A DNA stretch of 64,000 nucleotides from Varibaculum cambriense (GTDB lineage: Bacteria > Actinomycetota > Actinomycetes > Actinomycetales > Actinomycetaceae), in the NCBI RefSeq assembly GCF_022133705.1, contig NZ_JAKNHJ010000009.1:1-64000 (forward strand). Direction: 5' to 3'. The translations under genes and the position numbers were made by a program. The first letter of the stretch is position 1, and each line of letters starts with the position of its first letter. The notes beneath the pieces are model-generated. The model was given only the letters and a program-made list of their open reading frames with translations, was not told the DNA's origin and did no database searches. Below are positions 237-44,903 of the stretch, piece by piece.

Positions 237-343
237 GCGCGGGGGATAGATTTTATCCGAGTAGGCGCGGTGGGCATAAGAATTTGGAAAACGTCGCTAC
301 GTTTTCCAACTCCTTGGGCGGGAGGAAAAACTTTTCCCTCGCG
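237..343 (+). repeat. Structured repeat family A, copy 1
   Basis: The element has an outer stem (about 238-254 with 326-343), the conserved strand ATCCGAG-GGCGCGGTGGGC, an inner hairpin at 284-309 (TTGGAAAACGT, loop CGCT, ACGTTTTCCAA), then the conserved strand TTGGGCGGGAGGAAAAA. The same plan recurs at 14703, 40281, 40457, 43056, 43460 and 43601. It lies just beyond the IS3 end and downstream of the minus-strand FKBP gene, so it could sit in that transcript's 3' tail. There is no T-run as in a plain terminator. Confidence 0.75.
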
Positions 344-363
344 TCCTCAAGATATAGGAACTG

Positions 364-14640: not shown

Positions 14641-14702
14641 CCTCCTGGAGACTATCGACCGCATAGAGGGGCTGGGGTAGAAAAAGCACTCGGAAAGAAG
14701 GC

Positions 14703-14806
14703 GCGGGGGTTAGGTTTTTCCTCCCGCCCAAGAATTCAGAAAACGTAGCGACGTTTTCTGAATTCTTATGCCCACCGCACCCACTCGGATAAAACCTAGC
14801 CCCCAC
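14703..14806 (-). repeat. Structured repeat family A, copy 2
   Basis: Read on the minus strand: outer stem GTGGGGGCTAGGTTTT, conserved ATCCGAG-GGTGCGGTGGGCATAAG, inner hairpin (14731-14766, 16 bp perfect with loop AGCG), then CTTGGGCGGGAGGAAAAA and the returning stem AACCTAACCCCC. The outer stem differs from all other copies yet still pairs, with one mismatch. It lies in the 560-base gap between cydB and cydD, next to a family B copy. Confidence 0.8.
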
Positions 14807-14818
14807 ACCCGGGTAACC

Positions 14819-14972
14819 GGTCTGGGTGAAAAAAGATGCGAGAGGGGACAAGCTATAAATCATTACCTTCAGAATCGGATACGTTCCTCTTTAGATGGCT
14901 TTCTATTCTGCCCTTGTCTTATATCTTGCAAGGCTCACCGGGGTCCCCCGAGCGCTTTTTTCACCCAGACCC
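14819..14972 (+). repeat. Structured repeat family B, copy with a long inner loop
   Basis: The outer stem GGTCTGGGTGAAAAAA (14819-14834) pairs with TTTTTTCACCCAGACCC (14956-14972). Inside are the family B strands GATGCGAGAGGGGAC and CTCACCGGGGTCCCCCGAGCGC. The insert between them (about 14850-14930) is not recognised. The same strands occur at 31661-31750 (minus) and 43424-43743. It lies about 125 bases upstream of cydD, so it would be in the leader if cydD is read through from cydB. Confidence 0.7.
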
Positions 14973-15095
14973 GGAATGAGCGTGGGAGGAGAAAACCCTC
15001 TCCCGCGCACAACCTCAGCCTAGATTGGGATGCGTTTAGAGTTTTCAGGTTCGTGTGGGAAAATAGTCCCATTAAATGCACGGAGGATACTTGCC

Positions 15096-31609: not shown

Positions 31610-31808
31610 CGAACGGTACGAAAACCGTTTTGCCTATCCCCAATCACCGCTATACAAGAGGTCTGGGGTGGGGAAAGCGCTCGGGGGACCCCGGTGAGCC
31701 TCGCTGCGCTCAGCTCAAGCCCCCTCTCGCATCTTTTCCCGCCCCAGCACCCAGGGATTGAATGAGGGGGGACAAAATTGTGTGCAATCTTGCCAGGGGG
31801 ATTACTAT
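31610..31808 (+). repeat. Structured repeat family C, unit 3, split by a family B element
   Basis: The left part CGAACGGTACGAAAACCGTTTT equals the start of unit 1, and the right part (GAATGAGGGGGGACAAAAT, TGTGCAATCTTGCC, then GGGGATTAC) equals its end. Between them lies a family B element at 31661-31750 on the other strand. So this copy was interrupted by, or grew, a family B insert. With units 1 and 2 it brackets the ABC island in direct orientation. Confidence 0.7.
31661..31750 (-). repeat. Structured repeat family B, short copy
   Basis: On the minus strand: stem GTGCTGGGGCGGGAAAA, then GATGCGAGAGGGGGCTTGAGC, a short inner loop, GCTCACCGGGGTCCCCCGAGCGC, and the returning stem TTTCCCCACCCCAGAC. 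The inner GAGC/GCTC also pair. This is the most compact B copy and shows that the element does not need a large insert. Confidence 0.7.
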
Positions 31809-40062: not shown

Positions 40063-40280
40063 CGCTTCTCCTTTAGTGATCGCAAGGTTCGTCTTCCCCA
40101 ACGGCCTGTGCACACTACAGAGTGATGACACGCGGTGTCTCAGTTTCTATTTTGCCCTCGATAGCGATTTTCAACAACCCCAAAAGCCTCTGACCGGCAA
40201 TTTTGTGACTACTGAGGCCAATGTGGCACCTGTGGTTTACCGATCGAGAGAAAACACGAGAAGAGGCTTGAGCGATAGCT

Positions 40281-40382
40281 CGGGGGCTGGGTTTGATCCG
40301 AGCAGGTGCGGTGGGCATAAGAATTCGGAAAACGCCGCTACGTTTTCCGAATTCCTGGGCAGGAGGACAAACCCAGCCCCCG
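40281..40382 (+). repeat. Structured repeat family A, copy 3
   Basis: The outer stem CGGGGGCTGGGTTT pairs perfectly with AAACCCAGCCCCCG. Conserved strands: ATCCGAGCAGGTGCGGTGGG and CTGGGCAGGAGGAC. The inner hairpin at 40321-40354 is GAATTCGGAAAACG, loop CCGCTA, CGTTTTCCGAATTC. Just upstream (about 40240-40275) are family B left-strand remnants (CACGAGAAGAGGCTTGAGC). Confidence 0.85.
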
Positions 40383-40456
40383 CGCTAACTAACAGCCACC
40401 AGGCTCATAGCACGGGTCGAGGTCGGGAAAAGATACGAGAGGGGGCTTGAGCATAA

Positions 40457-40563
40457 GCGTGGAGGCGGATTTATGCCGAGGGGTAGGCTCCGGGCACTAA
40501 ATCCGTGAAAATGCCAAAGCATTTTCCGGATTTCGGGGCGCGAGGCAAAATCCGCCTCCGCGC
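40457..40563 (+). repeat. Structured repeat family A, copy 4 (variant b)
   Basis: The outer stem GCGTGGAGGCGGATTT pairs with AAATCCGCCTCCGCGC. The conserved strands differ from copies 1-3: ATGCCGAGGGGTAGGCTCCG and TTCGGGGCGCGAGGCAAA. The inner hairpin at 40499-40533 is AAATCCGTGAAAATGC and its near-complement. A family B left strand (GATACGAGAGGGGGCTTGAG) precedes it at 40434-40452. The plan is the same; both strands and stems are changed together. 40063-40586 contains these two copies and no gene. Confidence 0.85.
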
Positions 40564-41081: not shown

Positions 41082-42935
41082 CTATTCCTCCTCGCTGCCC
41101 GCTGCCGCCGCAGCCGGAACGATTTTTTCTGCCCGCGCATAGGCTTCCGCGAGATCCTGGTGCACCTGGTCATTTACATATTGGAAGGCATCTACAACTG
41201 CGATTTCACGGCGTTCACCAGTGGCACGACACCGTACTTCCACGGTTCCTTCTTTCAATCCGCGCCCGATCACTACCAGCCAGGGCATGCCCAGCAGTTC
41301 CGCATCCTTGAATTTAACCCCGGCAGAGACTTTCTTGCGGTCATCGATCAAAGTATCGATCCCGGCGGCGGTGAGCTGGTCGCCTAGCGTTTGCGCGGCC
41401 TCGAAAAGTTCTGTCCCTTTGCCGGTCACCAGTGCATGCACTTGGAAGGGCGCCACATTAGTTGGCCATTTCAGCCCGACCTCGTCGTGGTATTCCTCGG
41501 CGATAGCGGCCATTACCCGGGAAACCCCGATTCCGTAGGATCCCATGGTTACTACCTGGGATTTCCCGTTTTGATCGAGCACGTTTAGCCCTAGCGCCTC
41601 GGAATATTTTGTTCCGAGGGCGAAGATATGCCCGATTTCGATTCCGCGGGCGGTCTGCAAGGCTCCAGAACCATCGGGAGCCGGATCCCCATCTCGCACT
41701 TCCGCAGCTTCAATAAAGCCGTCAGCGCGGAAATCTCTGCCCGCCACCAAGTGATAAAGGTGGGTGTCTTCTTTGCCGGCGCCCGCGATCCATTCGGTAC
41801 CTTCTACTACCCGCGGATCTAGGAGGCAGCGGGGGCTGCCAGAAATGTTTCCGTCCTCATTAATTTTGCGATCCGGATGGTCTGGCCCGGCGCAGGTAGG
41901 CCCAGTAAAGCCCGGTACGATATTGGGGTAGGCGGCCATATCTTCCGGGGTCGCCATTTCTACGTCTGCCCCCAAGGAGGCTTCGAGGCGCCGCATATCA
42001 ATTTCGCGATCTCCGGGTACGCCCAGGAGCAGCACTTCCCGTTTACCATCGGCATAAGTCGCGGCAACCATGAAGGCTTTCAAAGTGTCAGCTTTAGTCC
42101 ATGCTCTGCCATCTTCGCGGGGGAAATGCTCGTTCGAGTAATCCACCAATGCTTCTATAGTGTGTGCACCGGGGGTTTTACGTTCAATCGCGGCGGGAAG
42201 TTGCGAATAATCTTGCGGCTCGGGGGCAATAGTGGTCACGGCCTCCACATTGGCGGCATACCCGCCCTCGGAGCGCACAAAAGTATCTTCCCCAATAGCA
42301 CAAGGGAAAATGAACTCTTCAGAGCGCGATCCTCCCATAGCGCCCGCCATCGCGGAACAAATCACGAAATCTAGCCCTAACCGCGAGTAAATCCGCTGAT
42401 ATGCGCGGCGTTGCTGCTGATAGGATGCCTCTAGCCCCTCGTCGTCAATGTTGAAAGAGTAGGCGTCCTTCATAATGAATTCGCGGCCGCGAATCAGACC
42501 TGCCCGAGGGCGCGCCTCGTCCCGATATTTTTCTTTGATCTGGTAGAGGACGACCGGCAGATCTTTATAGGACGAATAAAAGTCTTTCACCAACAGGGTG
42601 AACATTTCTTCGTGAGTGGGCGCCAATAGATAGTCAGCGCCTTTGCGGTCTTGCAGTTTAAACAGGGAGGGCCCGAACTCTTCCCAGCGGTTGGTCGCTT
42701 CATAGGGTTCGCGGGGCAACAGCGCGGGGAAAGCTACCTCGAGGGCGCCGATGCGATCCATTTCTTCGCGTACTACCTGCTCTACGCGCCGAATCGTGCG
42801 CAACCCTAGCGGGGTCCACGTATAGATTCCGGGTGCAGCACGGCGAATATAACCGGCGCGCACCAGCAGTTTATGGGAATCCACTTCGGCATCTACCGGG
42901 TCTTCCCGCAAAGTCCTAACAAAATAAGTCGACAT
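41082..42935 (-). CDS. proS: Prolyl-tRNA synthetase (bacterial type)
   Basis: Attaches proline to tRNA-Pro. Class II synthetase: motif 1 region [21 protein letters not shown], motif 2 with [25 protein letters not shown]-type core, and motif 3 [18 protein letters not shown] near residue 470. The long insert between motifs 2 and 3 is the editing (INS) domain of the bacterial form. Length 617 with the ATG at 42935; an in-frame GTG four codons upstream is possible. Neither start has a clear ribosome site. def follows at once. Confidence 0.95.
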
Positions 42936-43055
42936 ATTGTAAGCCACGTTCGCCAGTTTAGTAGATGATGCAAAGGAACCTAAACCGCGCCGTTCCGGCA
43001 GGAATCAACAATACTTTTTATCCGGATACCGGTGCTAACGCTAGCCAAAAGTTAC

Positions 43056-43165
43056 GCGCGAGCGAGAAGTTTTTCCTCCCGCCCAAAAACTCGCCGATGC
43101 CCACGGCATCTGCGAGTTTTACGCCCACCTAACCTGATCGGATAAAACTTCTCTCTCGCGCTCGC
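43056..43165 (-). repeat. Structured repeat family A, copy 5
   Basis: On the minus strand: outer stem GCGAGCGCGAGAGAGAAGTT, conserved ATCCGATCAGGTTAGGTGGG, inner hairpin 43085-43120 with AAAACTCGC at the base and GATGCC/GGCATC at the tip, then TTTGGGCGGGAGGAAAAA and the returning stem CTTCTCGCTCGCGC. Stems and hairpin are unlike other copies; the G-rich strands are kept. Confidence 0.8.
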
Positions 43166-43279
43166 GGTTACGGCGGTAGCAAGATACGGAACCCCGGGTT
43201 GAAGCACCAAGAGCAAACTTGCGTTGACAATTCCTGCAAGGAGCAGCGCGGGGAAAAATAAAAAGACGGGCGGGTTAAA

Positions 43280-43422
43280 CGGGGAGAGCTTGGTTTTATT
43301 CGAGCAGGTTGACTTTATTCAAGTGGTTTCAACTTCAGATACCCGGCTATTCAAAAGGAAAGCGGTAAGACCCTTGAGCTTAGGAATTCGGTAAACGTCG
43401 CTAGGGGGTTGGGGTTTTCGTA
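43280..43422 (+). repeat. Decayed copy of family A repeats
   Basis: GAGAGCTTGGTTTTATTCGA matches the left strand of family A, and about 90 bases later AGGAATTCGGTAAACGTCGC and GGTTGGGGTTTTCG match parts of its hairpin and right side. Pairing is lost. This shows that copies degrade in place and that the intergenic region 42936-43754 is largely made of these elements. Confidence 0.55.
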
Positions 43423-43459
43423 GAGGAGTGGGAAAAGATCGGGCTTAGGTTGGCATTAA

Positions 43460-43568
43460 GCGGGGAGGATTGGTTTTATCCGAGCGGGCGCGGTGGGCAT
43501 AAGAATTCGGGAAACGTGGCTACGTTTGCCGAATTCTTGGGCAGGAGGAAAAAACCAATCCTCCCCGC
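43460..43568 (+). repeat. Structured repeat family A, copy 6 (nested)
   Basis: The outer stem GCGGGGAGGATTGGTTTT pairs perfectly with AAAACCAATCCTCCCCGC. Conserved strands ATCCGAGCGGGCGCGGTGGG and TTGGGCAGGAGGAA. Inner hairpin 43501-43538, AGAATTCGG-G-AAACGT with one G-G mismatch. It lies inside the family B element at 43424-43743. Confidence 0.85.
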
Positions 43569-43600
43569 GGGAAAAGATGCGAGAGGGAGAGTGATACTAA

Positions 43601-43708
43601 GCGCGTGGGCAGATTTATGCCGAAGGGTAGGCTCCGGGCGTTAAATCCGTGAAAATGCCAAGGCATTTTCACGGATTTCGGGGCGCGAGGTAAAATCTGC
43701 TCACGCGC
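43601..43708 (+). repeat. Structured repeat family A, copy 7 (variant b, nested)
   Basis: The outer stem GCGCGTGGGCAGATTT pairs with AAATCTGCTCACGCGC (one mismatch). Variant b strands ATGCCGAAGGGTAGGCTCCG and TTCGGGGCGCGAGGTAAA. Inner hairpin 43643-43678 is perfect: AAATCCGTGAAAATGCC with GGCATTTTCACGGATTT. It differs from copy 4 in both halves of the outer stem. Confidence 0.85.
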
Positions 43709-43754
43709 GTTACCGGGGTTCCCCGAGTACTTTTCCCACTCCTGCCTAGAGAAA

Positions 43755-44903
43755 CTAGGCGATTACCTCGACTTCACCGGAGCCTTCTTCTAGACCTAGT
43801 AGCTCGGCTTGACGATGCGCCTCCGCAATCAGGGTAGGCACGATTTCCTCTTCGGGAACCGTCTTAATCACTTCGCCTTTAATAAAGATTTTTCCTTTAC
43901 CGTTACCGCTGGCTACCCCCAGGTCGGCTTCCCGCGCCTCGCCGGGACCGTTCACGATACACCCCATAACCGCAACTCGCAGCGGCACTTTAATCTCGTC
44001 CTTCAGCGCATCAGTAACGGCGTTTGCCAACTTGTAAACATCGACTTGGGCGCGTCCGCAGGAGGGGCAGGAAACAATCTCCAGGGTGCGTTCTTTTAGC
44101 CCCATAGATTGCAGGATTTCAATCCCGACTTTTATTTCCTCCACCGGATCAGCAGATAGCGACACCCGGATAGTATCCCCGATGCCTTGACGAAGCAGCG
44201 CCCCGAAGGCGGTCGCCGATTTGATAGTGCCTTGGAAAGCCGGGCCTGCCTCGGTTACTCCCAAGTGTAGCGGCCAATCCCCCATTTCACTGAGCAGTTC
44301 GTAGGCGCGAATCATAGTCACCGGGTCATGGTGTTTAACCGATATCGCAAAGTCGTGGAAATCGTATTGCTCGAACAGGCGTGCCTCATTAACCGCGGAT
44401 TCTGCCAAAGCCTCCGGGGTAGCTTTCCCATGGCGTGCCATTACCCGCGGATCGAGGGAACCGGCATTAATTCCAATCCGCAGGGCGGTGCCGTGCTGGC
44501 GGGCGCATTTGGTGATTTCTTCCACCTGGTCATCGAATTTGCGGATATTACCGGGGTTTACCCGCACCCCCGCGCAGCCGCCCTCAATCGCGGCGAACAC
44601 ATATTTGGGTTGGAAATGAATGTCGGCGACTACTGGAATAGTAGATTTTTGGGCGATTACCGGCAGCGCCTCCGCATCATCTGCGCTGGGGCAGGCTACC
44701 CGCACAATATCGCACCCGGCGGCCGTTAACGCCGCTATCTGCTGCAAGGTGGCACCAATATCGGTGGTTTTGGTGGTACACATGGACTGTACGCTGATTG
44801 GGGCATCTCCCCCAATACCTACGTCTCCGCAGCGAATCTTGCGAGTTTTTTTTCGCGGGAAACCCGCGGGCTTTACTTCCGGCATTCCTAGTTCAACACT
44901 CAC
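43755..44903 (-). CDS. ispG: 4-hydroxy-3-methylbut-2-en-1-yl diphosphate synthase (GcpE)
   Basis: Fe-S enzyme of the MEP isoprenoid pathway, converting MEcPP to HMBPP. Visible: [20 protein letters not shown] at the start of the TIM barrel, [14 protein letters not shown], and the cluster ligands in [17 protein letters not shown] plus [19 protein letters not shown] (three Cys). Length 382 fits the bacterial short form. It is the last gene of the run dxr-rseP-ispG, so two MEP genes lie close together. Confidence 0.96.

What the first reader, a model, noticed from the sequence alone, without database searches (positions are those of the whole stretch)
43056..43708. Dispersed structured element (family A) with covarying outer stems
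At least seven copies share one plan: outer stem, conserved strand (ATCCGAG...GGTGGGC), inner hairpin, conserved strand (TTGGGC-GGGAGGA), returning stem. The sequence of the outer stem differs between copies (for example CTGGGTTT/AAACCCAG, GATTGGTTT/AAACCAATC, GGCGGATTT/AAATCCGCC, GAGAAGTTTT/AAAACTTCTC) yet both halves change together. The base pairs next to the stem also change in step (TCC/GGA in one variant, TGCC/GGCA in the other). Such compensatory change is the mark of selection for structure, in RNA or in hairpin DNA. Other copies lie at 237, 14703, 40281 and 40457. I do not recognise a known family.
Basis: partly seen in the sequence, partly recalled or inferred. Interest (0 to 1): 0.85.

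Follow-up and report, generated by a model that had tools for sequence, protein, structure and literature searches.

The report
Varibaculum's paired hairpin repeats between genes
Bacteria of the genus Varibaculum carry dozens of copies of a short folded element at the ends of their genes, whose stems differ from place to place yet still match, which points to selection on the fold; what it does is not known.

Summary
Seven copies lie in the window; 47 copies from six Varibaculum genomes align without gaps: 95.1% of cells pair, 24 of 38 pairs change on both sides, 0 of 500 shuffles reach this. The outer stem is about 18 bp of locus-specific sequence; the internal loop is nearly invariant. G·T outnumbers A·C on the element's forward strand (62:27, one copy per locus), in both gene orientations though small in each. 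This favours selection on one folded strand over DNA-level repair alone. At orthologous sites the stems change less than silent codon sites while the core can be exchanged. Copies lie at gene ends, 3' side toward a stop codon, and close neighbours are mostly head-to-head (33 of 37 pairs in two genomes; the window has two exceptions). All six Varibaculum genomes are full of it; 194 other Actinomycetaceae genomes gave two single copies. No Rfam family matches; the window's genome gave no hit to the Y1-transposase or reverse-transcriptase model. I file it as a new variant of REP/BOX-type structured repeats, perhaps transcript-end barriers; that function is inferred.

The parts
43460..43568 (+). 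Type A element, complete: outer stem, ATCCGAG..GGTGGGC strand, inner hairpin, TTGGGC-GGGAGGA type strand, returning stem
43600..43708 (+). Type B element, complete (TGCC/GGCA closing pairs)
43056..43161 (-). Type A element, C (CTAGG loop) subtype, complete
43424..43743 (+). Remains of a type D element: outer arms 43424-43437 / 43730-43743 with D core pieces near 43572-43590 and 43707-43730; A and B lie inside it
   Evidence: (I8)
43280..43420 (+). Degenerate long-form A-like element (GGTTTTATTCGAGCAGG..CAGATACCCGG)
40278..40385 (+). Type A element, complete
40457..40563 (+). Type B element, complete; same direction as its A neighbour, so an exception to the head-to-head rule
14701..14808 (-). 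Type A element, complete; head-to-head with the D element that follows
14817..14973 (+). Type D element, long form
237..344 (+). Type A element with poorly matching middle of the outer arms
31659..31752 (-). Type D element, short form

Best explanation
It is a genus-specific family of interspersed, probably once-mobile structured elements of the REP/BOX kind. Shown: the forward strand folds into an outer helix of about 18 bp, closing pairs followed by 5'-GA / GA-3', an asymmetric G-rich internal loop of conserved sequence, and an inner hairpin; both helices covary; copies lie between genes, 3' side toward a stop codon, and close neighbours are mostly head-to-head. Inferred: the copies work in cis. 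In a convergent pair the two head-to-head elements each stand between one gene's stop codon and the transcript coming from the other side, and the forward fold is made in that incoming transcript. The most likely effect is a barrier: it ends, pauses or protects that transcript and keeps it from running antisense into the opposite gene. Also inferred: copies spread by an unknown route, and cores are later exchanged between copies by conversion while the locus keeps its own stem.
For: Covariation in both helices. G.T over A.C on the forward strand, one copy per locus: outer stem 62:27 (p = 0.0003), inner stem 18:5 (p = 0.011); also in ++ (12:3) and -- (11:3) settings. Constraint in place: in 49 orthologous pairs chosen by a conserved flank the arms differ at a median of 3 of 28 letters (mean 16%, four outliers) while silent third positions of the adjacent gene differ by 37%. 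Position: in convergent gaps the element is nearer the gene on its 3' side in 26 of 32 loci (p = 0.0005), and in codirectional gaps the stop codon is 54.5 nt away if it faces the 3' side and 242 nt if it faces the 5' side (p = 0.03). Head-to-head: A-D 17 of 19, A-A/B 16 of 18 neighbour pairs, none tail-to-tail. Locus-specific stems with swapped cores, e.g. elements 13/71 against 30/104, 15/69, 64/107, 100/124.
Against: No transcript data were available. There is no run of U after the 3' arm, and terminator-like sites in 42900-43800 are 3 against 1.5 expected by chance. The element alone is not strongly oriented in codirectional gaps (20 against 16 loci, p = 0.62). Some window neighbours (A and B at 40278/40457 and 43460/43600) run in the same direction. 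D shows G.T:A.C of 6:11, against the trend. The flank filter could favour loci where whole intergenic stretches were exchanged between species. Compensated changes at orthologous sites include 11 transversions to 14 transitions, which template switching explains more easily.
Confidence: 0.4

Rival explanations
1. A purely selfish, non-autonomous hairpin element: the folded forward strand, as single-stranded DNA, is the substrate of an enzyme in trans. Position at gene ends is what is left after harmful insertions were lost, and head-to-head pairs are the units or traces of insertion.
For: High copy number in one genus; presence/absence between species; one filled/empty pair with a 13-bp repeat-like duplication and one copy flanked by a 22-bp duplication; strand asymmetry would also hold for single-stranded DNA; BOX, RUP and SPRITE repeats are also concentrated between convergent genes (PMC3049150, passages).
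Against: No Y1 transposase or reverse-transcriptase match in the window's genome. The stems of resident copies are constrained between species, unlike dead insertions. Direct repeats of score 12 or more flank only 3 of 80 loci, and two of those come from other repeats.
Confidence: 0.3
2. No selection on structure: template switching in replication keeps rewriting one arm from the other, so palindromes persist by mutation alone.
For: Template switching can create and maintain stems with compensatory changes (PMC8794818, abstract); 11 of 25 compensated changes counted at orthologous sites are transversions (pairs are not independent).
Against: It does not predict the G.T over A.C excess on one strand, nor the conservation of non-palindromic loop strands, nor low divergence of the arms.
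Confidence: 0.1
3. A family of trans-acting small RNAs or ligand-binding RNAs, each transcribed from its own promoter.
For: Conserved internal loop and longer forms with an extra conserved domain look like a binding site.
Against: Flanks of the copies show no shared promoter in the listing (judged by eye); one promoter-like site in 42900-43800 against 0.7 expected; about 50 copies per genome; no Rfam match.
Confidence: 0.07
4. A classical MITE moved by a DDE transposase that recognises terminal inverted repeats.
For: Short, palindromic, interspersed, intergenic.
Against: The outermost base pairs are the least conserved part (columns 1-4), the reverse of what such a transposase needs; no consistent target duplication.
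Confidence: 0.05

Closest known systems
REPINs / REP-BIME repeats with TnpA-REP (RAYT) transposases (PMC3116915, passages; PMC8266576, PMC2817692, listings only)
   Same: High-copy, extragenic, hairpin-forming; compensatory changes in the hairpin part are reported for REPINs; clusters of units in inverted order.
   Different: No Y1-transposase match in the window's genome. Here the conserved strands lie inside, between two variable helices, and are not inverted copies of each other over their length; the outer ends vary.
BOX, RUP and SPRITE repeats of Streptococcus pneumoniae (PMC3049150, passages)
   Same: Structured, modular, under 200 bp in most cases, many between convergent genes; SPRITE sits near gene 3' ends.
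   Different: Unrelated in sequence by Rfam-style search here only (no direct comparison made); the Varibaculum elements have locus-specific covarying stems and a head-to-head pairing rule.
ERIC/IRU and RU-type enterobacterial repeats (PMC2759123, listing; recalled otherwise)
   Same: About 100-130 bp imperfect palindromes between genes.
   Different: Host range and sequence; no comparison run beyond Rfam and phage/plasmid searches.
Integron attC sites (recalled, no call)
   Same: Folded single strand recognised by structure; arms vary in sequence but keep pairing.
   Different: attC has conserved outer core sites; here the outer ends are the variable part.

Membership tests
REPIN / REP with TnpA-REP | A Y1 (HUH) transposase gene in the genome | tested here: not met
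   PF01797 gives 0 matches in the window's genome, rings in 5 of 14 control genomes; only this one Varibaculum genome was tested
REPIN / REP with TnpA-REP | High-copy extragenic hairpin with compensatory changes | tested here: met
DDE-transposase MITE | Conserved terminal inverted repeats | tested here: not met
   outermost pairs vary most (columns 1-4)
DDE-transposase MITE | Constant-length target duplication | tested here: inconclusive
   3 of 80 loci above the permuted background, lengths differ; one filled/empty pair with a 13-bp imperfect duplication
Known Rfam RNA family | Match at the family's gathering score | tested here: not met
   only a tRNA in the window; weak, sub-threshold matches to unrelated families; none at E 0.5 or less in seven other loci
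Intrinsic transcription terminator | GC-rich hairpin followed directly by a run of U | tested here: inconclusive
   3 sites against 1.5 expected. A loose scan of gene ends flags 30 of 79 facing elements against 9 of 150 ends without one, but most hits are the inner hairpin's own T-rich arm read on the reverse strand
BOX element | boxA, boxB and boxC modules | not tested
   no BOX sequence was compared directly
Structured RNA element | Transcription of the folding strand | not testable with these tools
   no expression data held

The most novel reading that the evidence does not exclude
A new class of paired, structure-selected transcript-end elements: two head-to-head folded modules per gene junction, each read in the transcript arriving from the opposite gene, with a shared G-rich internal loop (possibly a quadruplex or protein site) as the active part, long forms carrying an extra domain, and cores renewed by conversion while each gene end keeps its own stem.
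Probability: 0.25. Interest if true: 0.8.

Novelty: new variant of a known kind. Interest (0 to 1): 0.6.

Why it matters
Short structured repeats are common in bacteria, and whether resident copies serve the host is an old question. This family offers measurable handles: locus-specific stems under apparent constraint in place, a strand-specific wobble signal, a fixed head-to-head arrangement, and six related genomes for comparison. If the copies do separate convergent transcripts, a genus has built its gene ends from a repeat. If they do not, the data still show how far template switching and copying alone can mimic selection for RNA structure, which bears on how covariation is read in general.

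Tried and rejected
Rfam match: none at gathering score except a tRNA; weak matches are far below the families' scores, and those lie on an ordinary hairpin after cydB. Hit in a clostridial contig (RUG409): a chance match of the pattern, no element there. Phage and plasmid records: no match at E 1e-5; one IMG/VR contig carries a complete copy. Autonomous version with a gene inside the hairpin: paired half-elements 112-295 nt apart turned out to be long or nested forms; two pairs about 3 kb apart have weak arm matches and were not taken as real. Replication-strand bias: strands by chromosome half are 10+/6- and 17+/14- in G003, 13+/16- and 9+/12- in G004, no sign of bias, but the origin was not located. 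Reverse transcriptase and Y1 transposase: no match in the window's genome. First register for type B was wrong and is replaced. The first count of the structure failed on length and was repeated. Alignment A2 used wrong coordinates for one row and was discarded in favour of A3. Background gaps come from loci fetched around elements, so I do not use them as a neutral expectation. Outer-arm divergence (10.2% against 27.6% in flanks, 35 pairs, 14 loci) was filtered on the arms themselves; one search uses a filter on the flanks instead. Papers: searches showed no paper on these repeats among the rows listed (10 of 101 for Varibaculum plus repeat); two Varibaculum genome papers were searched inside for repeat terms and say nothing on them.

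Full report
What is there. The region 42948-43754 lies between proS and ispG, both on the minus strand. It holds three complete elements and pieces of others. A BLAST search of the own genome with the region gave 86 matches. With the covariance model, two genomes scored more fully gave 70 and 78 matches (150 of 1277 and of 1359 candidates scored); leaving out reverse-strand echoes and matches below 49 bits I count 47 and 50 places, all but one in each spanning the whole model. These include types A and B.

Structure. Forty-seven complete type A copies, one per locus group, align without gaps over 108 columns. RNAalifold on its own finds nearly the same fold, with 22 of 38 pairs changed on both sides. 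Pairing of the outer arms ends sharply: among 83 copies Watson-Crick pairs number 69 at position 17, 54 at 18, 23 at 19 and 15 at 20. The closing pairs are TCC/GGA, TGCC/GGCA or GTC/GAC, each followed by GA on the 5' strand and preceded by GA on the 3' strand, which by established RNA chemistry could form tandem G-A pairs. The 5' loop strand is nearly invariant at its GG steps while the letters between vary (that set was found with patterns that require part of the strand, so its conservation is partly built in).

Selection or mutation. Compensatory change by itself can come from template switching (PMC8794818, abstract). Three results speak for selection on one strand. First, mismatches on the forward strand are G.T more than A.C: 103:35 in all 137 copies, 62:27 with one copy per locus group (83), 18:5 in the inner stem. 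Second, the excess is seen where the forward strand is sense to both neighbours (12:3) and where it is antisense to both (11:3, p = 0.057), so direction of transcription is not the cause, though numbers are small; in the -+ setting it is 4:3. Third, at orthologous sites chosen by a conserved flank, 49 pairs, the arms differ at a median of 3 of 28 letters (mean 16.0%, four pairs at 13-20) against 37.0% at silent third positions next door. Against this: D shows 6:11, the reverse; compensated changes at orthologous sites are 14 transitions and 11 transversions, in pairs that are not independent.

Stems and cores are separate units. Grouping 139 copies by neighbouring genes gives 83 groups, 34 with more than one member. 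In many, the stem is the same across species while the core differs: elements 13/71 against 30/104, 15/69, 64/107, 100/124. Some groups mix different elements of one gap. Conversion between copies would do this; it is inferred.

Place and pairing. Of 139 copies, 129 have a called gene on each side: 61 convergent, 35 with the stop codon only on the 3' side, 23 only on the 5' side, 10 divergent. With one copy per locus (73): 32, 20, 16 and 5; in convergent gaps the gene on the 3' side is the nearer in 26 of 32 (p = 0.0005); in codirectional gaps the stop is at a median 54.5 nt on the 3' side and 242 nt on the 5' side (p = 0.03), while the split 20:16 is not significant. In G003 and G004, 19 of 32 D elements have an A-like neighbour within 250 bp: 17 head-to-head, 2 in the same direction; A-like neighbours within 300 bp: 16 head-to-head, 2 same; no tail-to-tail pair. 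In the window the pair 14701-14808 / 14817-14973 follows the rule; A-B at 40278/40457 and 43460/43600 do not.

Mobility. At proS-ispG, A is present in 4 of 6 genomes, absent in G001, and a 3' half only in G003; at cydB the minus-strand A is in 4 of 6, with another A nearby in G002 and a half in G003. One filled/empty pair shows an imperfect 13-bp duplication with extra bases on both sides; one further copy has a 22-bp duplication. Most loci show none.

Range. BLAST: 6 of 39 genomes, all Varibaculum. Model of A: 8 of 200 Actinomycetaceae genomes, six Varibaculum and one copy each in two other genera (strict filters); a fuller search confirmed one copy each and none in a sister genome of one of them. 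Model of long D: 6 of 151, all Varibaculum.

Longer forms. D and A exist in forms with about 50-60 further nucleotides at the loop, sharing a motif like TCGGA(T/A)AC. An alignment of 15 long D copies gives 12 of 33 predicted pairs changed on both sides. Whether the short forms derive from the long ones is open.

Mechanism. I commit to a cis role at transcript ends, for the reasons above, at 0.4; the purely selfish reading is close behind at 0.3. No expression data could be used, and the terminator scans are inconclusive.

Noticed in passing
L210:1821-1978, L116:403-573, L158:2281-2455, L246:1427-1601: Long form of the A element with an extra conserved domain (CTAGACA .. TTCGGATACC(T/C)GGTTATAAATCAGAA) in place of the short loop; no Rfam match in three of the source loci tested.
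   Followed up: partly
window 14817-14973 and 31659-31752; alignment A3: Type D elements, short and long, with their own covarying outer stem, only in Varibaculum genomes.
   Followed up: partly
L198, L208, L098, L099 (places): Type E: closing pairs GTC/GAC without the bulged A, same internal loop.
   Followed up: no
L221 (G150:C7) and L222 (G190:C1): Single complete A copies in two other genera of the family, one at a contig end, the other near an ORF that reads by eye like a serine recombinase; possibly horizontal transfer or, for the contig end, contamination.
   Followed up: partly
L283 (IMGVR_UViG_2786546869_000001), 515-610: A complete A copy in a contig filed as viral; not settled whether phage or host DNA.
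   Followed up: no
   Followed up: no
window 237-344: A copy whose two outer arms match poorly in the middle, as if made of two different copies.
   Followed up: no
G003 proS-ispG gap (L122): Half of one element and a whole one in the opposite direction, next to a 3' half of A: looks like an inversion between repeats.
   Followed up: no
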